Assembly: GCF_000828085.3 (NCBI RefSeq)
Contig: NZ_JXCA02000019.1
Span: forward strand, 503,606-537,818
Source of the DNA: Scytonema tolypothrichoides VB-61278
GTDB lineage: Bacteria > Cyanobacteriota > Cyanobacteriia > Cyanobacteriales > Nostocaceae
Direction: 5' to 3'
DNA: 34,213 nucleotides
Part shown: piece by piece, positions 2,208 through 19,825 of the stretch
Position numbering within the stretch: the first letter of the stretch is position 1
Layout of the letters: each line of letters begins with the position of its first letter
Position numbers and translations under genes: made by a program
The notes under the pieces: model-generated
Told to the model about the DNA's origin: nothing
Seen by the model: only the letters and a program-made list of their open reading frames with translations
The model's database searches: none

Positions 2208-4784
2208 TTACTCTGCCCAAACAATCACCCTTGGCTCATAAGGACTGGAGAGGTATTTGTGGTTTGGCAACACTCGTAAAGACAAGCCTTGTAAACCAGA
2301 TATGTTATACACAATTTCAGCAGTGTAAACACTTAATCCATCCTTATCTTCTCCTTGGTAATCCATGACCACAGGCACACCGTTAACAATTTGACCATCA
2401 GCATCAATGGCACCTTGATACAGTTCCACCTGTACATCCTTGTTGGTCAAAGTTGCCAAGTCAACTAAAGCTTGGACGTTAACAATTTGGTTAACCTCAA
2501 TATCTACTTCTGAGGATACGTTAACATCTTTGATTTTGATATCAAACCAGTGTGCAGTGAGATTTTCTTTCCAATCAGCTAGTTCTTTAGCTGGGGCGTA
2601 TTTATCAGCAGTGAGAGTGTGGTAGCGATCGCTTGTTGGGAAATAAGCCCGTTCTGCGTATTCTCGCACCATCCGTGCCGTGTTAAAGAACGGACAATTT
2701 AACTGGATTGCGTCTTTCATTTTATCAATCCAGCGGCGAGGCAAACCATCAACATCCCGGTCGTAGAACAGAGGGACAACTTCCTTTTCCACCAAATCGT
2801 AAAAAGCATTTGCCTCTATTTCATCTTGGTAACTGGGGTCATCATACATTTCCCCATGTCCAATCGCCCAACCAGTACGAACATAATCAGCTTCATCCCA
2901 CCAACCATCTAGTACACTTAAATTCGGCAAACCATTCATAGCTGCCTTCATCCCACTCGTACCAGAAGCTTCCCGTGGACGGCGTGGTGTGTTTAACCAT
3001 ATATCGCAACCAGCGACCATCAACCGAGCTATATAAATATCGTAGTTGGGAACAAACACAATCTGCTTTTCCAAGCCCTGTTCGTCGATGAAGTGATTGA
3101 TATCACGGATAAGTTCTTTACCAGGAATATCCTTGGGGTGTGCTTTACCAGAGATCACAAACTGCACTTTACGGTCTTTGTTGCCCAACAAAATCCGCTT
3201 GATTCGCTCAACATCTCGCATCCACAGAGTAGCACGTTTGTAGGTTGCAAAGCGACGGGCAAAACCAATAGTTAGAACTTTGGGATCAAGAACTTCTTGT
3301 GCAGAGGCAATTTCTGAGGGAGAAGCCCCACGGTCTCGCAAATGCTTCACCAGACGCTCCCGGACATACATAATCATATCCAACCGGCAGCGCTCGTGAT
3401 TGCGCCACAACTCCTCATCGGGGATCGCGTCCATCCGTTCCCACAAAGGGTTATCAGGCGGTGCTGATGACCAGCTTGGTCCTAGGTAGCGATCGTACAA
3501 CTCTTGTGTAGATTTAGCAACACAACTGCGAGCATGAACGCCGTTTGTAATTGCTTTAATCGGCACTTCCTCTGTGGGCACATTTCGCCACAAATTCTTA
3601 AACATTTGCCGTGACACCACACCATGCAGTTGTGCCACCCCATTAGAGAATGTTGCCATTTTCAGTGCGAGAACCGCCATACTAAAAGGCGCAGACAAAT
3701 CTCCAGTATTTTCGCGTCCCAAAGCTAAAAATTGGTCTTTATTTAACCCAAAGACATCAGCGTAATGTCCCAGGTAGTACAACATTTTGTCTGGGGGGAA
3801 CAAGTCAATTCCGGCTGGTACTGGCGTGTGAGTCGTAAAAATATTACTGGAAGCCACGACCTGTTTAGCTTCGGGATAATTCAGCCCCTCTTCCTGAAGA
3901 AGAATACGGATACGTTCTAGGGCAGAAAATGCCGCGTGACCTTCATTCATATGATACGCGGTGATGTTATACCCAAGGGCTTTTAGCATTCGCACACCAC
4001 CAATACCCAGCATAATTTCTTGGTGGATACGCATATCGATATCGCCACCGTAAAGCTGATCTGTGATGTTGTGGTCGTAAGGATTATTGGGTTCAATGTT
4101 AGTGTCGAGCATATACAGGGGAACTGATCCCACCTGTACACGCCAAACTCTAGCATAAACAGTACGCCCTGGATAATCCACCGAAATCCGCAATTCTGAG
4201 CCATCAGGATTGCGTTCTAGGTGCAAAGGCATATTATAAAAGTCGTTGATTGGGTAGCGTTCTTGCTGCCAACCATCAGCATTCAGATATTGAGCAAAAT
4301 AGCCTTGCTGGTAGAGTAAGCCCACACCAACCAAAGGTAGCCCTAAATCGCTAGCAGATTTGAGGTGATCCCCAGCAAGAACTCCCAAGCCTCCAGAATA
4401 GACAGGTAAACAATCTACAAGCCCAAACTCAGCCGAGAAATAGGCGTAATATTCTTGTCCTTTCTCATCTGAGGCATGACCAATTCTTTGTTTTTCATAC
4501 CACGTACGCTCTTGCAAATAATCCTCTAACTGGCGCGCGGCTCGATCCATCTGTGCCAAGAAGCCTTCATCTTCCACGACTTCCAACAGACGCGCTTGGC
4601 TAATCGTACCGAGCATCAAAACCGGATTGTGACGGCTAGACTCCCATAAATCAGGATCTAAGCGTCGGAATAAGTCTTTCGTCTCAACGTTCCAATCCCA
4701 GTGCAGGTTATATGCCAGCTTCCGCAGTGGCTCAAGTCGCTGCGGTAGTGAAGGGGAAACATTAAAAGTGCGAATCGGCTGCAT
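2208..4784 (-). CDS. glgP: Alpha-glucan phosphorylase, GT35 family
   Basis: An 858-residue enzyme that releases glucose-1-phosphate from glycogen-type glucans by phosphorolysis, in the cytoplasm. The N-terminus (about 10-120) carries the DUF3417-like extension of the long bacterial alpha-glucan phosphorylases. The GT35 core follows with YSGGLGVLAGDH (129-140), HMNEGHAA (278-285) and the pyridoxal-phosphate motif EASGTSGMK, whose Lys613 would bind the cofactor. Length fits the 'alpha-glucan family phosphorylase' subgroup rather than the classical muscle/MalP-type enzyme. It begins ATG at 4784 with MQPIRTFNVSPSLP, the usual start, and is monocistronic. In cyanobacteria these enzymes mobilise glycogen in the dark or under nutrient stress; that role is inferred here from the family. 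Confidence 0.93.
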   Translation of the reverse strand: MQPIRTFNVSPSLPQRLEPLRKLAYNLHWDWNVETKDLFRRLDPDLWESSRHNPVLMLGTISQARLLEVVEDEGFLAQMDRAARQLEDYLQERTWYEKQRIGHASDEKGQEYYAYFSAEFGLVDCLPVYSGGLGVLAGDHLKSASDLGLPLVGVGLLYQQGYFAQYLNADGWQQERYPINDFYNMPLHLERNPDGSELRISVDYPGRTVYARVWRVQVGSVPLYMLDTNIEPNNPYDHNITDQLYGGDIDMRIHQEIMLGIGGVRMLKALGYNITAYHMNEGHAAFSALERIRILLQEEGLNYPEAKQVVASSNIFTTHTPVPAGIDLFPPDKMLYYLGHYADVFGLNKDQFLALGRENTGDLSAPFSMAVLALKMATFSNGVAQLHGVVSRQMFKNLWRNVPTEEVPIKAITNGVHARSCVAKSTQELYDRYLGPSWSSAPPDNPLWERMDAIPDEELWRNHERCRLDMIMYVRERLVKHLRDRGASPSEIASAQEVLDPKVLTIGFARRFATYKRATLWMRDVERIKRILLGNKDRKVQFVISGKAHPKDIPGKELIRDINHFIDEQGLEKQIVFVPNYDIYIARLMVAGCDIWLNTPRRPREASGTSGMKAAMNGLPNLSVLDGWWDEADYVRTGWAIGHGEMYDDPSYQDEIEANAFYDLVEKEVVPLFYDRDVDGLPRRWIDKMKDAIQLNCPFFNTARMVREYAERAYFPTSDRYHTLTADKYAPAKELADWKENLTAHWFDIKIKDVNVSSEVDIEVNQIVNVQALVDLATLTNKDVQVELYQGAIDADGQIVNGVPVVMDYQGEDKDGLSVYTAEIVYNISGLQGLSLRVLPNHKYLSSPYEPRVIVWAE

Positions 4785-5032
4785 AGGTTAGCGAAACTAT
4801 AGCTTTGGCTATAGTTATTGTTGACTGTATTTCTCTTATGCTGCCAATTCTTTATACTATGTTTGTAAAGTTACTCTGACATTGTTAAGCTTTGAAAAGC
4901 ATTCTCAGTTTTCTGACGAAAGCAAAGACTACGGCTGTTTTACATACTTGGTATGAGCTTTTGCCATCTTTTTATTCTTATAAAACTTTATAAATGAGCT
5001 TCCTGCTTGGGCTCCGCTACGATGACTGACAA

Positions 5033-5470
5033 GGGTCTTTCCAAAGTGGCGATCGCCTGTAAGCGCCCTATTGCCCACAGATCTTTTGACGTCCGCCTAT
5101 TGCGGGAGGAACAAGTATTGCTGGGATTGTACATCATCTACCAGCAATGAATGCATTAACGACTCCTAATGTCAAGTATTACCGTTGCATACATCCCCAT
5201 AATTGGAGTGGTGCGTTCCGCTGTTGGGCTAACGCGCACGCTCCGCGTATGCGCTTTAGAGAGGGCTAAAGCGTAAGCGCAAGCGCACGAACCCAAGCGG
5301 TTTGCGCTTTGCGCACGCAAGCGAGGGCTAACGCGCAGCGTCTCCGTAGGAGATACGCATCTCATTCGCCGTAGCTAGGGAACGGAACACACCAAACCGC
5401 TCATGTCCGACACTCAAGTCGTTAAACCATCAGAAGCCTCACCCACTCCCGCAAGGGCGTATATCACTTT
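5033..5470 (+). pseudogene. Decayed glutamine synthetase-family gene
   Basis: Fragments in order match the C-terminal half of glutamine synthetase / glutamate-putrescine ligase-like proteins. They are GLSKVA near 5033, then a clear open stretch from 5105 ([19 protein letters not shown], then [17 protein letters not shown] up to about 5228), and LKSLN at 5413 in another frame. The expected 'W(S)GAFxCWG-NREAA' is broken exactly where a GC-rich repeat (5229-5360) begins. There are several frame changes and no start or stop. I infer a dead gene disrupted by repeat insertion. Only the block at 5105-5228 is convincing by itself. Confidence 0.6.
5229..5360. repeat. GC-rich interspersed repeat cluster
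   Basis: About 130 bp built from variants of GCTAACGCGCA, GCTAAAGCGTAAGCGC and GCAAGCGAGGGCTAACGCGC, followed by GTCTCCGTAGGAGATACGC, itself a small hairpin. Its composition differs sharply from the AT-rich flanks. It lies inside the glutamine synthetase-like remnant. The remaining parts of 4785-5560 (glgP upstream side and the 100 bp before the kinase) show no gene. Confidence 0.75.
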
Positions 5471-5560
5471 TTTTCTTTTTTTCCCAAAATGCATGCATAA
5501 TCTTGAAATTTTAACCCTATGAAATCCAAAATGCTACTCATAATTAAATAAAAATTTAAA

Positions 5561-7060
5561 ATGACTACAGAAATAAACCCAGGAACTTTAATCAATAACC
5601 GTTATCTGATTAAGAAAATTCTTGGACAAGGAGGGTTTGGACGAACTTACTTAGCATTGGATACTCAGCGCTTTGGAGAAGCCTGTGTTCTCAAAGAGTT
5701 TTTACCTGCAACAACGAAACCAGAGATTATTCGTAAATCTAGGGAGCTATTTGAGCGGGAGGCTAAAGTTTTATACCAAATTCAGCATCCTCAAATTCCC
5801 AAATTTCTGGCTTGGTTGACGGAGAACGAACGGCTGTTTATTGTCCTAGAATATATTGATGGCAAAAATTACTCAGAAATTCTATCGGAACGTCTTTCTA
5901 ATAAGGGTAGACCATTTTCCGAAAATGAAGTCAGAGCATGGCTACTAGATATGTTGCCAGTTTTGGAATATATCCACGATCGCAAGATTATTCACCGGGA
6001 TATTTCACTGGAAAATGTTATGCTTCGCCATAACGAATCTAAACCCATGCTGATTGATTTTGGGGTGGTTAAGGAGAAATTGACTGAGATATTATCAGCC
6101 CAATCTCCGCATTACCAATACTCAGTTCACAGTTCAGTAGTGGGGAAAATTGGCTATTCTGCACCAGAACAGCTGCGTGTAGGACATTGCTACCCCTCAA
6201 GTGATATTTACTCACTTGCTGTTTCTGCCGTTATCCTTTTGACTGGGAAAATGCCACATGTGTTGATGGATGGTTCTCTAAACTGGCAATGGCGCTCTTA
6301 TGTCAATATCAGTGACTCTTTTGCTCGCATACTAGAAAAAATGCTAGCAGAAGTACCCACAGAGCGCTACCAGTCAGCAAAACAAGTTTTCATTGAACTT
6401 AATAATAACTCATCATTGTCACTGGGTGGGGTTTCGAGTTCGTTACCGAAAACACAGCAAATTCACACTAACACTACACACGGGCAAGAAAAGCAAAACA
6501 GCGAAACAAATACTCAATCGCATACACAAACACCAGTCTCTCTCAACCCAGAATTTTTAGAATTTGTCGGGCGAGAATTAACTAGTTTTGTTGGTCCAAT
6601 CGCCAGTGTTTTGATGAAAAATACTTTAGACCAAAGCCCACAGATAGCACCAAAGGAATTCACTGAAGCGCTAGCTAAAGAAATTTTTGATGCACAAAAG
6701 GCACAAGAGTTTAGAAATCGCCTCCAACTTGTTGTTGAACCTAACTTAGCAAAACTTGCAAATCCTAGCAGTTCATACCAAGCCTTTGGAAATTATCCTG
6801 CAATTAGCGATCCGGAGTTTTTAGATCGTTGTCGGCGAGAACTCATTAGTTTTGTTGGTCTTTTTTCTAGCGTAATTCTCATAAAAGATGCTTTAAACCA
6901 ACACCCAAACCTAACTCAAACCCAACTTATAGAAACTTTGATGGCAGAAATTCCTGATGAGCAAAAAGCACAAAAATTTAAAGAACGCATTCAGAAAACA
7001 ACAAGTCATATCAAATCCTTTGGGGCGATTGCTAGCAAAATTTCAGCGCTTTTCAATTGA
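5561..7060 (+). CDS. Ser/Thr protein kinase with two C-terminal repeat domains
   Basis: A 499-residue Hanks-type kinase. The N-terminal catalytic domain (about 14-280) has all key elements: glycine loop GQGGFGRTY (22-30), ATP-anchoring Lys45 in VLKEF, catalytic loop HRDISLEN (145-152), DFG at 166-168 and APE at 201-203. It should therefore be an active phosphotransferase. A polar Ser/Thr/Gln-rich linker (about 285-327) leads to two homologous ~60-residue units at 330-390 and 418-478. Each contains PEFL....REL.SFVG, then a helix, and ends EQKAQ(E/K)F(R/K)(N/E)R(L/I)Q. I do not recognise a named function for these units; they are probably helical protein-interaction modules. No membrane segment is evident. 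The gene is monocistronic and follows a long intergenic region. Confidence 0.9.
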   Translation: MTTEINPGTLINNRYLIKKILGQGGFGRTYLALDTQRFGEACVLKEFLPATTKPEIIRKSRELFEREAKVLYQIQHPQIPKFLAWLTENERLFIVLEYIDGKNYSEILSERLSNKGRPFSENEVRAWLLDMLPVLEYIHDRKIIHRDISLENVMLRHNESKPMLIDFGVVKEKLTEILSAQSPHYQYSVHSSVVGKIGYSAPEQLRVGHCYPSSDIYSLAVSAVILLTGKMPHVLMDGSLNWQWRSYVNISDSFARILEKMLAEVPTERYQSAKQVFIELNNNSSLSLGGVSSSLPKTQQIHTNTTHGQEKQNSETNTQSHTQTPVSLNPEFLEFVGRELTSFVGPIASVLMKNTLDQSPQIAPKEFTEALAKEIFDAQKAQEFRNRLQLVVEPNLAKLANPSSSYQAFGNYPAISDPEFLDRCRRELISFVGLFSSVILIKDALNQHPNLTQTQLIETLMAEIPDEQKAQKFKERIQKTTSHIKSFGAIASKISALFN

Positions 7061-13398: not shown

Positions 13399-15042
13399 AT
13401 GAGTGATAATCCCAGTCAAAACCGAAAAATCTTGCTGATGTCAGCAAATCCCTCTGGGACAAGCCCATTGCGTCTGGATGAGGAGATGCGCGAAATCAAG
13501 GAGGGGTTAAGACGGGCAAAAAAGCGTGATCGCTATTCAATAGATAGGGCAGAAGCAGTACGCTATAGAGATATACATAGAGCCATTTTAGAATACGAGC
13601 CGCACATCATTCATTTTTCCGGACACGGTTCTTTTGAAGATGGTTTAGTATTTGAAGATGAAGCCAGTCAAATAAAGCTAGTTGATGCACAAGCTTTGGC
13701 AGGATTGTTTCAATTGTTCGCTGACCAAGTTGAGTGTGTTGTCCTTAATGCTTGTTATTCAGAGTATCAGGCAAGGGCTATAGCACAACATATTCATTAT
13801 GTCGTAGGCATGAGTCAGGCAATTCAAGATAGAGCAGCAATTGAATTTGCTGTGGGTTTTTATGATGCACTGGGAGCAGATAAGAGTTATGAGTTTGCTT
13901 ATAAACTAGGTTGTAGTCTCATTCAGGTAGCAGGGATATCACAACACCTCATTCCTCAACTTATCACTCAGAATAATTTACAGGATAATTTACAATCCCA
14001 ACATTCAAAAGAAACACTACCTTGTAATTATACACCAGAACCAGATAAAATCATATATATTGAACGACCGCCCATTGAGGAAAAAAGCTTTGGTGCGATT
14101 GTACAACCAGGGGCGCTGATTCGCCTGAAAGCACCGCAGAGAATGGGAAAAACTTTATTATTGGAGAAATTGCTCGACTATGCGAGACAGCAGGGTTATC
14201 AAACAGCTAAATTAGATTTGAAACTTGCTGATACTGATACCCTAACTAACTTAAAAACCTTCTTGCAGTGGTTATGCGTTGATGTTTCTGACAGTTTAGA
14301 ACTTCAACCCAAAGTGAACGAATACTGGCAAGATATCTACGGGTTGAATAAAAACTGTACTCGTTACTTTCAAAAGTATTTACTCTCAGATATCAAAACG
14401 CCTCTGGTCTTTGCTATAGATAATTTTGAAAGATTATTTGAATATCCTGATATTTTCTCCCCATTTTGCTTGCTTCTGCGGAGTTGGTATGAAACAGCAA
14501 AACAAGGAGACAGAGTTGGTAATATTTGGAAGAAACTGCGGTTAGTTGTGGTTCATTCCACCGAAGTTTATCCATCGTTGGATACCAATCATTCACCGTT
14601 TAATGTTGGATTAGCGATAGAATTACCTGAGTTTAACCTTTCTCAGGTCATAACTCTTGCCAACCAGTATGAATTAGATGCACAGTTGGGAGAAGATGGA
14701 TTTCGTCAGTTGATGGGGTTGGTAGGAGGACACCCATATCTCATACAGCAGGCTTTAGCCAATCTCAAGAGTCAGCAAATCACTCTAAAACAACTTTTAA
14801 GCCTTGCGCCGACGGAACAAGGAATTTTTAGCGACCATCTGCGACAGCAACTATGGAATTTACAACACAATCCTCAGTTAGAATCAGCTTATAAAAAAGT
14901 AGTGATGGCAGATGAACCTATGAGACTTGATGCGGAAGTTGGGTTTAAACTGCACAGCTTGGGGTTAGTGAAACTCTCTGGTAATGATTGTGTTCCCAGT
15001 TACGATTTATATCGTCAGTACTTCTCAATGCGTTTGGGGTAA
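13399..15042 (+). CDS. CHAT protease-like domain fused to AAA-like ATPase
   Basis: A 547-residue two-domain protein. The N-terminal CHAT domain (about 8-180) starts KILLMSANPSGTSPLRLDEE. It has the caspase-like catalytic pair: His76 in HFSGHG and Cys119 in VVLNACYS, so it is probably a competent peptidase. After a linker comes an AAA-like (AAA_35-type) NTPase: P-loop APQRMGKT (245-252, Lys251), hhhhD strand LVFAIDNFERL with Asp341, and a C-terminal winged-helix-like part with GGHPYLIQQAL. This arrangement resembles STAND-like conflict or cell-death regulators, in which a nucleotide switch controls a protease. The next gene begins 3 bp after the stop, so the two are surely co-transcribed. The substrate is unknown. 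Confidence 0.88.
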   Translation: MSDNPSQNRKILLMSANPSGTSPLRLDEEMREIKEGLRRAKKRDRYSIDRAEAVRYRDIHRAILEYEPHIIHFSGHGSFEDGLVFEDEASQIKLVDAQALAGLFQLFADQVECVVLNACYSEYQARAIAQHIHYVVGMSQAIQDRAAIEFAVGFYDALGADKSYEFAYKLGCSLIQVAGISQHLIPQLITQNNLQDNLQSQHSKETLPCNYTPEPDKIIYIERPPIEEKSFGAIVQPGALIRLKAPQRMGKTLLLEKLLDYARQQGYQTAKLDLKLADTDTLTNLKTFLQWLCVDVSDSLELQPKVNEYWQDIYGLNKNCTRYFQKYLLSDIKTPLVFAIDNFERLFEYPDIFSPFCLLLRSWYETAKQGDRVGNIWKKLRLVVVHSTEVYPSLDTNHSPFNVGLAIELPEFNLSQVITLANQYELDAQLGEDGFRQLMGLVGGHPYLIQQALANLKSQQITLKQLLSLAPTEQGIFSDHLRQQLWNLQHNPQLESAYKKVVMADEPMRLDAEVGFKLHSLGLVKLSGNDCVPSYDLYRQYFSMRLG

Positions 15043-15045
15043 GCT

Positions 15046-17592
15046 ATGGTTGACCAGTACATTTTCTCTGGAAGTTTACCCGAAGAAGCCACTACTTATG
15101 TCACGCGAGAAGCTGATGGCGAATTGTATGAAGGACTCAAGGCGGGTAAATTTTGTTATGTGCTGAACTCCAGACAAAGTGGAAAGTCCAGCTTGCGAGT
15201 CCGAACCATGCGCCGATTACGAGAGTCTGGCGTGGAATGTGCAGCTATTGACCTTTCTGCTGGAGGTATTCAGAATGTCCCACCAGAACAATGGTATGCA
15301 GATTTGATTGATACGCTGATTGAGAGTTTTGGATTGGATGTAGAATTTGGGGATTGGTGGTTACAAAATCAATTAAATTCGCTTGTCACGCGATTTCGGA
15401 AGTTTCTTGAAGAGATACTGCTTGCTGAGATTAAAGAAAATATTGTCATTTTTATTGATGAGATTGATAGTGTTCTAAGCCTCAATTTCCCCACAGACGA
15501 CTTCTTTGCATTTATCCGTGCCTGTTACAATCAGCGTGTTGATAATCCTGAATATAATCGCCTCACCTTTTGTTTGTTGGGAGTCGCATCACCTAGCAAT
15601 TTGATTTCAGATAAAAAGCGCACCCCGTTTAATATTGGGAAAGCTATTTCTCTCAAAGGATTTCAACTGCATGAAGTCGAACCGTTAGAGAAGGGGTTGT
15701 ACGGAAGGTATTCTGATTCTCAAGCAGTGATGAAAGAAATCTTACACTGGACGGGAGGACAACCGTTTCTGACGCAAAAGCTGTGTCAGTTTATGGTGGA
15801 AGAGTTAGAAAGAGATAATCCCCGTACTGTTGAACAGGTTGTGCGATCGCGCATTATTGAAAATTGGGAATCGCAAGATGAACCAGAACATCTGCGAACG
15901 ATTCGAGATAGGATTCTCAGGGATGAACAACGCGCATCTTACCTGCTGGAGTTGTATCAGCAAATTCGGGTAACACAGGAGCAATCTGAAATTACAGCAG
16001 ATGATACTCAAGAGCAAAGCGAATTACAGCTTTCAGGATTAGTCGTTAGAGAACAGAATAAATTAAGAGTTTACAACCCAATTTATCAGGAGATTTTCGA
16101 GCAGAATTGGATTGAAACTCAATTAAGAAATTTACGCCCATATTCAGAGAATTTTAAGTTTTGGGTAGCTTCTGGAGGTAAGGATGAATCCCGACTGCTG
16201 CGGGCTAAGGCGTTACAGGATGCTCTAAAATGGGCGTGTGATAAAAGCTTAAATTATCAGGATAGGGAGTTTTTGGCAGCTTCTCAGGCTAAGGAGAAAG
16301 AAGAGGCGATCGCTGCGAAAGAACAAGAAGCTGCATTAAAAAGAGAGAGAGAGGATAAGGAAGCAGCACAGGCAAGAAATCAACTACTCAGTGAAGCTAA
16401 TAAGAAAGTTAAAATAAGAATTATTTGTGCATTTATTGTTTTAGTTGTAGCAGTTCTGGGAGCAACAACTATAGGGTTATCTTCTATAAAACAACTTAAT
16501 GAAGCTAAAGAAGAAGTTGAAGCTGTTCAGGAATTAAATAAACTAGCTGGTGAATTACAAAAAAATACCAACTCTCGCTCTCAGAGGATTACCTTTGATT
16601 CAAACGAGGCTTTAAGGCTGTCTGCCTTATCTTTTAACATTAATAATCACCAACTCAAACAAGCATTAGTATTTGCTGCTAGTTCACAAGCATATCAACA
16701 ACTACAAAAATTAAAAGAGGCAGAACGAGAAATTAAACAAAGCCAGAAAATTTTAGCTGAAGCCGATAGGAAAAATTTAAATTCCAGTCAGGGCTTACAA
16801 GTTCAAGTATTATTTCAGCAATATCAAGGAAGTCTACTAGCTCAAAATCAAGAAACTCAAAAAGCTACTGAAGCTTATCATACAGCATTTGAGATTTTAA
16901 AAAATAATCCACAAGAAACTGATTTTACTAAAGATAATCAGTTGCTCACAGGTGAAAATATTGAAGCTGTTCATCGAGGTCTAATAGCGCTACTCTCCAA
17001 AAATAATAAAGAACCAGACTTGAGAAAACAGGTTGAACAATTCCTAACCCAATATTTATATGCTCAACTTAAATATTCTCTGAAGGCTAAAGATTGGAAG
17101 GCTGCTGACCAACAAACAGTCCAACTCATGCTTAATGTTGCTAAAAGAGAAGAACAAGGATATTTAGATTATGGCGACATTAATAATTTTTCTTGTCCAC
17201 GCCTAAAAGAAATAAACCAACTTTGGGTAGAATCAGACAAACGTTTTGGCTTTAGTGTGCAAAAGGAAATATGGATTAATAATACTGGAAATAGACTGGG
17301 TATAAAACCGTCGGACTGGACAGACTGGACTAACAAAGATTATGACAATTATCTGAGGTTTGCCAAGACAGTTGGATGGTATGATGACAAGAAAGTAGAC
17401 GAAGCGGGAGGCTCAAGAGGAGACTTTAGGAGGATTGACGACTTGATAGAGCGTATAAAAGATAACTCTTCCTGGGGTAGGGGAAGCCTACCTCAGATGT
17501 TTTTTATGCGTGACTTTTTTTCAATGTTGAGTTTTAACGGTCGAGCATGGTCGGCTAACTTCTTCTCTCGCGTTGCGACTTGTAAAGTGTAA
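15046..17592 (+). CDS. AAA-like ATPase with transmembrane helix and C-terminal GUN4 domain
   Basis: 848 residues. AAA_35-like ATPase (about 5-360): Walker A NSRQSGKSS (41-49, Lys47), Walker B IVIFIDEID (133-141) and GGQPFLTQKLC (237-247). A charged coiled coil (415-452, KEKEEAIAAKEQEAALKRE) leads into one membrane helix (about 456-477). Then comes a TPR-like helical region (515-650). The last ~180 residues match GUN4: YAQLKYSLKAKDWKAADQQT, then CPRLKEINQLWVES, RFGFSVQKEIW (733-743) and the ending FSRVATCKV. GUN4 binds protoporphyrins and assists Mg-chelatase; here it is more likely a ligand sensor or interaction domain tied to the ATPase switch. Follows the CHAT gene by 3 bp. The start ATG is the first codon of the usual family N-terminus (YIFSGSLPEEA). 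Confidence 0.88.
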   Translation: MVDQYIFSGSLPEEATTYVTREADGELYEGLKAGKFCYVLNSRQSGKSSLRVRTMRRLRESGVECAAIDLSAGGIQNVPPEQWYADLIDTLIESFGLDVEFGDWWLQNQLNSLVTRFRKFLEEILLAEIKENIVIFIDEIDSVLSLNFPTDDFFAFIRACYNQRVDNPEYNRLTFCLLGVASPSNLISDKKRTPFNIGKAISLKGFQLHEVEPLEKGLYGRYSDSQAVMKEILHWTGGQPFLTQKLCQFMVEELERDNPRTVEQVVRSRIIENWESQDEPEHLRTIRDRILRDEQRASYLLELYQQIRVTQEQSEITADDTQEQSELQLSGLVVREQNKLRVYNPIYQEIFEQNWIETQLRNLRPYSENFKFWVASGGKDESRLLRAKALQDALKWACDKSLNYQDREFLAASQAKEKEEAIAAKEQEAALKREREDKEAAQARNQLLSEANKKVKIRIICAFIVLVVAVLGATTIGLSSIKQLNEAKEEVEAVQELNKLAGELQKNTNSRSQRITFDSNEALRLSALSFNINNHQLKQALVFAASSQAYQQLQKLKEAEREIKQSQKILAEADRKNLNSSQGLQVQVLFQQYQGSLLAQNQETQKATEAYHTAFEILKNNPQETDFTKDNQLLTGENIEAVHRGLIALLSKNNKEPDLRKQVEQFLTQYLYAQLKYSLKAKDWKAADQQTVQLMLNVAKREEQGYLDYGDINNFSCPRLKEINQLWVESDKRFGFSVQKEIWINNTGNRLGIKPSDWTDWTNKDYDNYLRFAKTVGWYDDKKVDEAGGSRGDFRRIDDLIERIKDNSSWGRGSLPQMFFMRDFFSMLSFNGRAWSANFFSRVATCKV

Positions 17593-17798
17593 CATTTAAG
17601 GCTTTCAGAAGTTTGTAAATATTTATAAAAGCCTCCTTTCCCACGCAATAATCAGCATTTCATAAATCCGATACCTGGCACCGGGGGAATATAGCAGTTT
17701 GCGTGGATAAATTTTTCTGCTACCTCATGCACTTCTGTACTCTCCGTCACCCTCTGCTTGTCCCAAGGTAGGCTCATTTGTCCTGGCGACGACTTTTT

Positions 17799-17922
17799 AT
17801 ACCAATTTGAAAAAAGAATGCAACACATAGAAAATACCCCTCCCTAACCCTCCCCTTAGAAAGGGGAGGGTGCGCGTTAGCGCGGGTGGGGTATCTGTCG
17901 CAAACATTTTTTGAATCGGTAT
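17799..17922. repeat. MITE-like repeat with ATACC(A/G)ATT ends
   Basis: The segment begins ATACCAATTTGAAAAAA and ends TTTTTTGAATCGGTAT, imperfect inverted ends. Inside is a strong hairpin (ACCCTCCCCTT / AAGGGGAGGGT) and a GTGCGCGTTAGCGCGGGTGG unit. The other parts of 17593-18070 show no convincing gene: only short frames and G/C-rich repeat debris following the GUN4 gene. Confidence 0.55.
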
Positions 17923-18070
17923 TAGCTTTCCCACCCTTCACGACCGATGGCAAAAAGCGACTACCCCAGTAATTTCGCTTGTCTGGTTTCGCCTGTGGTC
18001 GATATTTCTGCCCTCTGCCTTTCTGAGGTCAAAAGCGTTAATCCTCCTTTCGGTTCCAATCAATAAGACT

Positions 18071-18571: not shown

Positions 18572-19825
18572 TTGTTTGGATGTCAACAAGTTTTAATCAA
18601 GTCGAATAAAGATACTGAGGCGATTCTTGAGTATCTTTGCTCTGAATCAAATGACTTGTACAATTGTGCGGTTTATTATGCTCGTCAAATATGGTTTAAG
18701 ACAGGCAAAATCGTAAGCGGTTTTGATTTAACTGCTGAAATGAAAACGAATCGTCATTTGAATGCAGGGTACGCAAGCTCAATGCAGCAAACCTGCATAA
18801 ATGTCGGTGAAGCATTCAAGTCATTTAAGCAGTTGTTAGCTAAATCTAAGAAAGGTGAATTAGAGCAAAAACCGAAACCACCGAAGTATCGAAAGTCTGG
18901 AGGATTGTTTACTGTTACCTACCCAAAACGATGGTTAAAGTTAGTAGATAATAAAATCAGATTTCCGTTAGGCAATCAAGTTAAAGCGTGGTTTGGAATT
19001 AGTGAATTTTTCTTGTCAATGCCATCTAATCTTGATTGGAAAGTAGTTAAAGAGATTCGCATCCTACCTAGAAATGGTGCTTTTTATGCTGAATTTGTTT
19101 ATTCAATGCAAGCAAAACCCTATCAGTTAGACCCATCAAAAGCACTTGGTTTAGACCCCGGATTAAATAATTGGCTAACCTGCGTAAGTAATATCGGTAC
19201 TAGCTTTATCGTTGATGGCAAGGAGCTTAAAGCCTTGAATCAATGGTACAACAAACAAGTTTCGACAATGAAAGACGCAAAGCCTCAAGGTTTCTGGTCT
19301 AGAACGCTTGCACAGATTACCGAAAAACGTAATCGTCAGATGCGTGATGCGGTGAACAAAGCAGCAAGAATTGTTGTGAACCACTGCCTAGAAAACGGTA
19401 TTGGCTTGATTGTGTTTGGGTGGAACAAGGGACAGAAAGATAGTGCAAACATGGGCGCTAAAACAAATCAAAAATTTGTTTCTGTTCCAACTGCCAAGCT
19501 GAAAGACAGAATTGAGCAACTGTGTCAACAGCATGGAATTCTGTTTGAAGAAACAGAAGAATCTTATACCTCAAAAGCAAGCTTTCTTGATAACGATGAA
19601 CTTCCGAAATATGGTGAAAAACCCAACGAGTGGAAATCATCAGGTAAACGAGTAAAGCGTGGTTTGTTCCGTACTGCTACTTTTGGTTATATCAATGCTG
19701 ATTGCAACGGAGCCGCAAACATACTTCGTAAGCTAAACGTAAAGGGAAAGTTCAACTTAGACTTGAGCGGACTTACTAGAGGCGTTTTGACAGCGCCCAT
19801 TCGGGTTAGGCTATGGTCTACCTGA
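18572..19825 (+). CDS. tnpB: TnpB RNA-guided nuclease (IS1341-type, rearranged RuvC-II)
   Basis: 417 residues of the TnpB/OrfB family, the transposon-encoded RNA-guided nucleases ancestral to Cas12. RuvC-I GLDPGLNN with Asp195 and RuvC-III NADCNGAANI with Asp377 are intact. At the usual RuvC-II position the sequence is LIVFGWNKGQK without Glu; the probable substitute is Glu329 or Glu330 in EESYTSKAS, as in the rearranged clade of TnpB related to Fanzor. There is no CxxC zinc finger. I chose the TTG at 18572 because AGAGG lies 6 nt upstream and the family begins 'MFGCQQ'. No tnpA is present, so mobility would need a TnpA in trans. Confidence 0.9.
   Translation: MFGCQQVLIKSNKDTEAILEYLCSESNDLYNCAVYYARQIWFKTGKIVSGFDLTAEMKTNRHLNAGYASSMQQTCINVGEAFKSFKQLLAKSKKGELEQKPKPPKYRKSGGLFTVTYPKRWLKLVDNKIRFPLGNQVKAWFGISEFFLSMPSNLDWKVVKEIRILPRNGAFYAEFVYSMQAKPYQLDPSKALGLDPGLNNWLTCVSNIGTSFIVDGKELKALNQWYNKQVSTMKDAKPQGFWSRTLAQITEKRNRQMRDAVNKAARIVVNHCLENGIGLIVFGWNKGQKDSANMGAKTNQKFVSVPTAKLKDRIEQLCQQHGILFEETEESYTSKASFLDNDELPKYGEKPNEWKSSGKRVKRGLFRTATFGYINADCNGAANILRKLNVKGKFNLDLSGLTRGVLTAPIRVRLWST

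What the first reader, a model, noticed from the sequence alone, without database searches (positions are those of the whole stretch)
13399..17592. CHAT/AAA-like plus AAA-like/GUN4 operon: a tetrapyrrole-linked conflict or signalling switch?
Two genes 3 bp apart encode a CHAT protease-like domain with intact His76/Cys119 fused to an AAA-like NTPase, and a second AAA-like ATPase with a coiled coil, one membrane helix, a TPR-like region and a C-terminal GUN4 domain. GUN4 is a protoporphyrin-binding partner of Mg-chelatase. Joined to an NTPase and paired with a caspase-like peptidase, it suggests a membrane switch that senses tetrapyrrole or redox/light stress and triggers proteolysis, possibly cell death or phage defence. 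Domain identities are from motifs; the function is inference.
Basis: partly seen in the sequence, partly recalled or inferred. Interest (0 to 1): 0.75.

Follow-up and report, generated by a model that had tools for sequence, protein, structure and literature searches.

The report
Split membrane receptor with hypervariable tip
Two neighbouring genes of a filamentous cyanobacterium look like the halves of a membrane alarm receptor, an inside protease and a membrane-spanning sensor, and the end of the sensor gene belongs to a class of gene ends that are unrelated even between close relatives, in a way reminiscent of immune receptors.

Summary
In detail: a CHAT-AAA_35 gene (13399-15042) and, 3 bp on, an AAA_35 / coiled-coil / one membrane helix / helical / GUN4 gene (15046-17592). 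The pair belongs to a modular cyanobacterial family: gene 1 is effector + AAA_35 (TIR, CHAT, kinase, cyclase, trypsin), gene 2 is AAA_35 + sensor (GUN4, WD40, GAF, others). 71 of 80 gene-1 loci have gene 2 downstream, and one genome fuses CHAT to GUN4. Folds resemble STAND/NLR proteins and SAVED-CHAT. GUN4 and WD40 types have a membrane helix, GAF types do not convincingly, so GUN4 is probably outside the cytoplasm. Tetrapyrrole sensing is poorly supported: canonical binding residues are not conserved. Unexpectedly, the GUN4 gene ends in a 72-nt hypervariable stretch running into a conserved DNA element with a stop in each frame. Of 43 such elements fetched by DNA match, 40 end GUN4 genes, in all three frames; a same-genus relative 95% identical upstream is no more alike in the stretch than shuffled sequence. 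A RAYT-like Y1 transposase family lies tail-to-tail with GUN4 genes in 25 of 60 loci, and with cyanobactin-like precursors in 8. Most likely: a split STAND receptor whose sensor tip is, or was, diversified by an undescribed process.

The parts
13399..15042 (+). gene 1: CHAT-AAA_35 effector protein, 547 aa
13414..13881 (+). CHAT domain (aa 6-161), His76 and Cys119 present
14041..15027 (+). AAA_35 (STAND-like NTPase with C-terminal winged-helix-like part), aa 215-543; Walker A GKT kept, Walker B reads DN instead of DE
15046..17592 (+). gene 2: AAA_35 - coiled coil - membrane helix - helical repeats - GUN4, 848 aa
15067..16101 (+). AAA_35 of gene 2 (aa 8-352), Walker A and Walker B DEID kept
16420..16476 (+). 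single hydrophobic membrane helix (aa 459-477), positive on its N-terminal side
17053..17397 (+). GUN4 core (aa 670-784)
17494..17565 (+). hypervariable coding segment (72 nt); no second copy found in the genome
17566..17600 (+). conserved DNA element with small hairpin (by eye); TAA at 17583, 17590 and 17597, one in each frame
17670..17681 (+). 12-mer GATACCTGGCAC, also present at cyanobactin-transposase loci
17679..17804 (-). decayed 3' fragment of a convergent RAYT-like Y1 transposase
17918..18025 (-). second fragment of the same decayed transposase

Best explanation
The two genes encode a split, STAND-type transmembrane receptor. Gene 2 is the sensor: its AAA_35 NTPase lies in the cytoplasm and a single membrane helix carries a helical stalk and a GUN4-fold head to the other side of the membrane (periplasm or thylakoid lumen). 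Ligand binding at the head is passed through the helix and coiled coil to the gene-2 NTPase, which then recruits or nucleates an oligomer with the AAA_35 domain of gene 1 and activates its CHAT protease by proximity, as in NLR and apoptosome assemblies. The head is not a conserved porphyrin sensor. It belongs to a class of GUN4 domains in which the porphyrin-binding C-terminal part has given way to a hypervariable peptide. That peptide appears to be exchanged as a block, and a downstream DNA element supplies a stop in whatever frame results. Shown: domains, pairing, one fusion, modular swaps, hypervariability, frame-independent stop element. Inferred: topology, co-assembly, protease activation, that the peptide is the ligand-contact surface, and that diversification is (or was) an active process.
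For: Pairing: 71 of 80 gene-1 loci have an AAA_35 gene of the gene-2 type within 3 kb downstream, 17 of them at 3 or 7 bp; CHAT-AAA_35-membrane-GUN4 in one ORF in L073. Modularity: of 78 gene-1 N-terminal segments TIR_2 42, CHAT 14, Pkinase 6, cyclase 4, trypsin 2, caspase 1; of 67 gene-2 C-terminal segments GAF 22, WD40 16, GUN4 16; single cases of PBP (L062) and peptidoglycan-binding domains (L166). Topology rule: membrane helix in 17 of 17 GUN4 types and 17 of 17 WD40 types; 19 of 22 GAF types have none and the other 3 only a weak stretch without positive flank. Folds: SAVED-CHAT, then RPP1, NRC4, Dark/Dronc for protein 1; STAND 6mfv and Avs5 for protein 2. Hypervariability: in 100 gene pairs with GUN4 core DNA at least 80% identical the core averages 86%, the next ~156 nt 72% (shuffled 51%), the segment 48% (shuffled 44%) and the element 90%; 90 or 93 of the 100 segment pairs are no better than shuffles. 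Window versus same-genus L039: 95, 83, 46 and 94%. 40 of 43 elements fetched by DNA match end a GUN4 ORF, with stop offsets +31 (15), +24 (14), +17 (8), other 3. Starting from the GUN4 core, the ORF is open to the element in 68 of 72 genes, against 18.7 of 61 expected from shuffles.
Against: No experiment. The models are shallow (pTM 0.48 and 0.56), fold matches have low TM-scores, and no complex was modelled. The orientation of the membrane helix is inferred. 9 of 80 gene-1 loci show no gene 2, and only some are at contig ends; the 71 include gaps up to 2.3 kb and a few gene-2 fragments. Gene-1 Walker B is DN in 15 of 32 aligned members, so its NTPase may not hydrolyse. Identity falls already in the stretch before the segment (72%), so part of the variation could be ordinary fast divergence, and short segments give less power. 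The window's own transposase is decayed and only fragments were found in this genome, so diversification may have stopped here. In this class the G+T bias of the segment is weak (59% against 51%). Five close pairs keep identical or clearly related segments, so exchange is not constant.
Confidence: 0.6

Rival explanations
1. Tetrapyrrole or redox switch: GUN4 binds protoporphyrin or Mg-protoporphyrin and gates the CHAT protease, linking pigment stress to proteolysis.
For: Clear GUN4 profile match and similarity to solved tetrapyrrole-binding GUN4 proteins; the idea is published for cyanobacterial conflict systems (passages); the window has Arg at the R214 column.
Against: F196 equivalent is Leu; Phe in 1 of 28 class members; the His of GHLP is kept in 0 of 28 but in 7 of 8 other GUN4 paralogues of this genome that were aligned; the R214 region is hypervariable, Arg in 5 of 28. 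The head sits behind a membrane helix, whereas the porphyrin pathway is cytoplasmic/stromal (general knowledge).
Confidence: 0.12
2. Ordinary regulated proteolysis or stress signalling without conflict role: the split receptor reports envelope or ligand state (as PBP, PG-binding and GAF variants suggest) and the hypervariable tail is a disordered, weakly constrained, fast-diverging end.
For: Sensor variants include Peripla_BP_6, PG_binding, GAF/PAS; residues 818-848 are modelled with pLDDT below 50; identity already falls before the segment.
Against: The tail stays open in 68 of 72 genes where 18.7 of 61 are expected by chance; near-identical cores carry unrelated tails; effectors are TIR, CHAT, caspase, typical of conflict systems.
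Confidence: 0.2
3. The hypervariable end is a by-product of a mobile element: an IS200/RAYT-like element sits at GUN4 3' ends, its end provides the stops, and upstream sequence decays or is rearranged by its activity.
For: Y1 transposase (Pfam) tail-to-tail with GUN4 in 25 of 60 loci; the DNA next to the element is conserved together with it; a REP-like hairpin is visible in the element (by eye).
Against: The element is at GUN4 gene ends even where only transposase fragments are left; open reading is preserved; the same transposase also lies next to cyanobactin-like precursors, whose core is known to be hypervariable and functional (passages).
Confidence: 0.25
4. Diversity-generating retroelement (DGR) acting on the GUN4 tail.
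For: DGR variable proteins of cyanobacteria include GUN4- and CHAT-containing ones (passages of PMC7517822).
Against: Segments differ in length (4-193 nt) and frame and most close pairs share no recognisable constant positions, unlike A-to-N substitution on a fixed template; the variable scaffold there is a C-type lectin (passages). A reverse transcriptase was not searched for.
Confidence: 0.04

Closest known systems
STAND/NLR receptors (plant RPP1, NRC4; bacterial Avs5; Dark/Dronc)
   Same: AAA_35 models match these folds, with low TM-scores; effector plus NTPase plus sensor logic
   Different: effector and sensor are on two proteins, each with its own NTPase, and the sensor half is membrane-anchored
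SAVED-CHAT (8tl0)
   Same: CHAT domain with the same His/Cys motifs
   Different: no SAVED domain found; CHAT is joined to AAA_35
VMAP / iSTAND ternary conflict systems (Kaur et al. 2020, PMC7159879)
   Same: NTPase-centred, overlapping pool of effectors, GUN4 as a cyanobacterial accessory domain (passages seen)
   Different: no MoxR-vWA component among the window proteins scanned; two-gene AAA_35 pair; the terms AAA_35 and CHAT do not occur in that text
DGR-diversified STAND 'antigen sensors' (PMC10907252)
   Same: hypervariable sensor tip on STAND systems in multicellular bacteria (passages)
   Different: GUN4 scaffold, length and frame changes, conserved three-frame stop element, Y1 transposase instead of fixed-length template substitution
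Canonical GUN4 (Mg-chelatase cofactor)
   Same: core of the fold
   Different: porphyrin-binding C-terminal segment not conserved
RAYT / tnpA_REP transposases
   Same: IS200-like Y1 transposase, few copies in most genomes searched, hairpin-bearing flank (by eye)
   Different: sits tail-to-tail with GUN4 and cyanobactin-like precursor genes; GUN4 and cyanobactin are not mentioned in the survey PMC6006769 (term search of main text)

Membership tests
CHAT protease | Pfam CHAT match with His-Cys dyad | tested here: met
CHAT protease | proteolytic activity and a substrate | not testable with these tools
STAND NTPase | P-loop, GG[HQ]P motif before a winged-helix-like end, fold match to STAND/NLR | tested here: met
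   low TM-scores; the reading of GG[HQ]P as the STAND GxP motif is recalled
STAND NTPase | ligand-induced oligomer | not testable with these tools
   -
GUN4 fold | Pfam GUN4 over cut-off | tested here: met
   83.2 bits against 29.2, but only positions 6-104 of 141
GUN4 porphyrin-binding protein | binding residues F196 and R214 (Synechocystis numbering) | tested here: not met
   F196 is L; an Arg stands at the R214 column in the window but inside the unalignable hypervariable tail (Arg in 5 of 28)
VMAP-type ternary conflict system | MoxR and vWA components next to it | tested here: not met
   none among 16 window proteins scanned with Pfam, of 41 ORFs listed
PADLOC PD-T4-6 | full-length match to the defence protein | tested here: not met
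   only profile 288-448 of 450 matched, over the GUN4 region
Diversity-generating retroelement target | fixed-length variable region changed at template adenines | tested here: not met
   length 4-193 nt; most close pairs no more alike than shuffles
Diversity-generating retroelement target | reverse transcriptase and template repeat | not tested
   -

The most novel reading that the evidence does not exclude
Cyanobacteria possess a previously undescribed gene-diversifying system, independent of reverse transcriptase. It replaces the 3' coding end of GUN4 proteins (including the sensor half of this CHAT/STAND receptor) and of cyanobactin precursors with new, frame-indifferent sequence. It depends on a dedicated RAYT-like Y1 single-strand transposase encoded tail-to-tail with the target and, at GUN4 genes, on a conserved hairpin element carrying stops in all three frames; an adaptive-immunity-like receptor repertoire would be one product.
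Probability: 0.35. Interest if true: 0.97.

Novelty: new variant of a known kind. Interest (0 to 1): 0.85.

Why it matters
Two things become testable. First, a class of split, membrane-spanning STAND receptors in cyanobacteria, with a swappable effector inside and a swappable sensor, is laid out as a parts list; in the held library the name AAA_35 gave 5 papers, of which only one (on sigma factors) means this domain, and PF14516 gave none. Second, GUN4 tails are a natural hypervariable protein region with unusual genetics (unrelated segments on near-identical cores, any frame, built-in three-frame stop) that shares a transposase family with cyanobactin precursors, whose hypervariable cores lack an agreed mechanism (to my knowledge). 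If the transposase drives the change, this is a new route to bacterial receptor and natural-product diversity.

Tried and rejected
Porphyrin switch: residues checked and not conserved. PD-T4-6 defence label: match confined to the GUN4 region. NCBIfam: no family. Rfam: no RNA family in the window at gathering threshold. Silent-donor cassette: the window's segment has no second copy found in its genome; the next best matches are 17-19 nt. DGR: pattern does not fit. A plain protein-level conserved tail: rejected, because the endings FSRVATCKV, ALRLVKCNI and FSRCDL are one DNA sequence read in three frames. The IS605-type TnpB ORF downstream (18572-19825) was not tested for a role. Literature (open-licence PMC papers only): GUN4 + CHAT domain 0 papers; GUN4 domain + cyanobacteria + kinase 4; GUN4 + hypervariable 2, both treating DGRs; REP-associated tyrosine transposase + cyanobacteria 4; cyanobactin + transposase + hypervariable 4; anacyclamide + transposase 7, of which I looked at passages of three. 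The in-frame stop count is circular, because ORFs were chosen as reaching the element; I use, which starts from the GUN4 core, instead. A short-pattern search of this genome (up to 3 mismatches) gave 8 places, of which C3:503734, C1:1077358 and C1:1238689 are not at a GUN4 match; its backward control gave 1, so the pattern alone is loose. My note that no match crosses the middle was wrong: one does (G361).
Full report
Observation. Pfam finds CHAT (aa 6-161) and AAA_35 (215-543) in protein 1, AAA_35 (8-352) and GUN4 (670-784) in protein 2. His76 and Cys119 sit in GHG and NAC motifs that align with the SAVED-CHAT structure 8tl0. A single strong hydrophobic helix lies at aa 459-477 of protein 2, with charge +4 before and -2 after it. 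The genome has 7.9 Mb in 31 contigs and 14 GUN4 matches.

The pair is a family. A search of 59 relatives with protein 2 matched all 59, many only through the shared AAA_35/coiled-coil part. Fetched neighbourhoods show gene 1 (something + AAA_35) directly upstream of gene 2 (AAA_35 + something) again and again. Of the other nine, at least three have little room left on the contig. All 80 titles are cyanobacterial. Gene-1 N-termini (78 of 80 scanned; the other two were too short): TIR_2 42, CHAT 14, Pkinase 6, Sigma70_r4_2 6, cyclase 4, GerE 3, Trypsin_2 2, Peptidase_C14 1, EAD1 1. Gene-2 C-termini (67 of 70 usable given): GAF 22, WD40 16, GUN4 16, and single cases of peptidoglycan-binding (L166), TPR (L161), MORN (L107) and a ResIII/EcoEI_R helicase (L108), plus Peripla_BP_6 (L062). 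Combinations by similarity: TIR-GAF 19, CHAT-GUN4 10, TIR-WD40 9, unknown-GUN4 5, kinase-WD40 3, the rest in smaller or unassigned groups. In L073 CHAT, one AAA_35, the membrane helix and GUN4 are one 1074-aa ORF (draft genome), a natural fusion that argues for joint function.

Membrane side. All 17 GUN4 types (window included) and all 17 WD40 types have a membrane helix about 70 or more residues after the NTPase. 19 of 22 GAF types have none, and three have a weak stretch with negative flank; the remaining types are mixed. GAF and PAS are cytoplasmic sensors; PBP and PG-binding domains work outside (general knowledge), and both sit in gene 2 after the same coiled-coil/membrane region. So GUN4 here is most likely outside the cytoplasm (inference, about 0.7).

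NTPases and folds. Gene-2 NTPases keep D138-E139-I140-D141 in all 36 aligned rows. The gene-1 clade of this window reads D-N at Walker B (15 of 32 rows), others D-E and variants. Protein 1 (pLDDT 84, pTM 0.56) matches SAVED-CHAT, then archaeal AAA+ 2fna, NLRs RPP1, NRC4, WRR4A and Dark/Dronc among many AAA+ proteins. Protein 2 (pLDDT 80, pTM 0.48) matches the STAND protein 6mfv, Orc2, RuvB and Avs5. TM-scores are low throughout. By analogy with paired NLRs, I read gene 2 as the active switch and gene 1 as the recruited effector; this is inference.

Porphyrin. Passages of PMC8967248 name Synechocystis F196 and R214 as binding residues; one search gives their place through 1y6i and the genome's own canonical GUN4. 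In 28 AAA_35-GUN4 rows F196 is Phe once; GHLP His is kept in none (7 of 8 in the other GUN4 paralogues of this genome that were aligned); the R214 stretch is not alignable (Arg in 5 of 28, the window among them). The canonical site is not conserved; another ligand, or another way to bind a tetrapyrrole, is not excluded.

The tail. The protein ends FSRVATCKV, ALRLVKCNI or FSRCDL are the same DNA in three frames. An element beginning TCTCGC-N3-GCGACTTGTAAA, with TAA at offsets 17, 24 and 31, follows the gene: 26 of 30 AAA_35-GUN4 genes have it, entered in frames 0, 1 and 2 in 14, 5 and 7 cases. In this genome, of six matches to the element by similarity, five are at GUN4 gene ends (of 14 GUN4 matches) and one is partial, beside a transposase fragment. 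A looser pattern search also hit three places away from GUN4, with one hit for the backward control. A 901-nt query across 118 family genomes hit 77 of them; in the capped list many matches start at positions 659-667, the segment/element junction, without the upstream block. I fetched 40 such places, picked by hand down the list (mostly those with no upstream block), plus three loci returned by that call: 40 of 43 elements end a GUN4 ORF, with stop offsets +31 15, +24 14, +17 8, other 3; the remaining 3 have no long ORF, one of them (L311) at a contig end. In another genus, 28 of 29 genomes match a GUN4 gene-end query; apart from the query's own locus the listed matches stop before or begin after a 190-nt middle, except one at 73% (G361). 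That middle includes about 150 nt of GUN4 coding sequence before the segment proper (the query's own segment is 38 nt), so alone does not isolate the tail.

Nature of the variation. 61 segments of at least 20 nt: G+T 66% against 51% in the core (56 of 61 higher, Wilcoxon p 2e-10) and 51% (s.d. 8%) in 592 other gene ends. The bias is strong in other GUN4 genes (71%) and weaker in this class (59%). Among 100 pairs with core identity of at least 80%, identity runs core 86%, the ~156 nt up to the segment 72% (51% shuffled; 97 of 100 above shuffles), segment 48% (44% shuffled), element 90%; 90 (20 shuffles) or 93 (30 shuffles) segment pairs are no better than shuffles. For the 42 pairs within this class it is 41 of 42. 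Of the seven others, five are 79-100% identical and two are marginal. Few intermediates favour replacement over drift, but the falling identity before the segment and the short lengths leave fast divergence possible. L232 and L233 (core 99%, element 100%) differ by an indel that changes the frame. Starting from the GUN4 core, the ORF reaches the element in 68 of 72 genes, with 18.7 of 61 expected by shuffling (sets overlap but are not identical), so the segment is translated and kept open.

The transposase. Downstream of many of these genes, on the other strand, lies a Y1_Tnp (IS200-like) gene or its remains. From a search of 195 genomes of the order, 41 positive, I examined 60 loci covering every listed place but one at a contig end: 25 have GUN4 tail-to-tail, 8 a cyanobactin-like precursor (recognised by recalled leader/tail motifs), 27 other. 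Of these 27, six have under 200 nt of sequence beyond the gene. L206 also showed a precursor-like ORF, and L208, L210, L254, L266 and L273 show RiPP-like leaders by eye. Thus 27 of 60 show neither by the tests used, which counts against an exclusive link. The 12-mer GATACCTGGCAC occurs four times in the genome, three at GUN4 ends and one beside a transposase fragment; it is exact in all 8 cyanobactin-like loci but in only 7 of its 25 GUN4 loci, and may simply belong to the transposase's flank. Published clusters report a transposase between artE and artF and between sphE and sphF; I saw passages only and no mechanism drawn from it there. This genome holds only fragments of the transposase.

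Known or new. GUN4 as a sensor in conflict systems is published (passages), as are DGR-varied STAND sensors and GUN4/CHAT domains in DGR proteins. The two-gene AAA_35 system and the GUN4 hypervariable end were not found in the held library by the searches. Overall: a new variant of STAND conflict receptors whose sensor tip may be diversified by a new mechanism.

Noticed in passing
L202, L203, L205, L207, L262, L263, L265, L271 (and L206): The same Y1 transposase family lies tail-to-tail with cyanobactin-like precursor genes with differing cores; each of the eight loci carries the 12-mer GATACCTGGCAC.
   Followed up: partly
L073:2908-6132 (-): One ORF joins CHAT, a single AAA_35, coiled coil, membrane helix and GUN4: a natural fusion of the two genes.
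   Followed up: partly
L108:3349-8412 (+): Gene 2 with two AAA_35 matches followed by a ResIII/DEAD helicase and EcoEI_R C-terminal domain, beside a CHAT-AAA_35 gene.
   Followed up: no
L062:1559-4309 (-) and L166:10973-14071 (+): Gene-2 proteins with a periplasmic binding protein domain or peptidoglycan-binding repeats after the NTPase part.
   Followed up: partly
L050, end of the ORF at 4325-6943: The stop element carries a partial duplication of its own first half, a possible trace of the exchange process.
   Followed up: no
window 18572-19825 (+): IS605 OrfB/TnpB-like ORF just downstream of the pair, starting with TTG.
   Followed up: no
PADLOC PDLC04062 (PD-T4-6): The C-terminal part of this defence profile matches the GUN4 region, so GUN4 proteins may be mislabelled as PD-T4-6.
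   Followed up: no
window 14029-15039, Walker B: Gene-1 NTPases of this clade read DN instead of DE (15 of 32 aligned), so the effector half may not hydrolyse ATP.
   Followed up: partly
L279 (G000:C7:161100-165000): The only copy of the 12-mer in this genome not at a GUN4 gene lies beside a transposase fragment; the partner gene is unknown.
   Followed up: no
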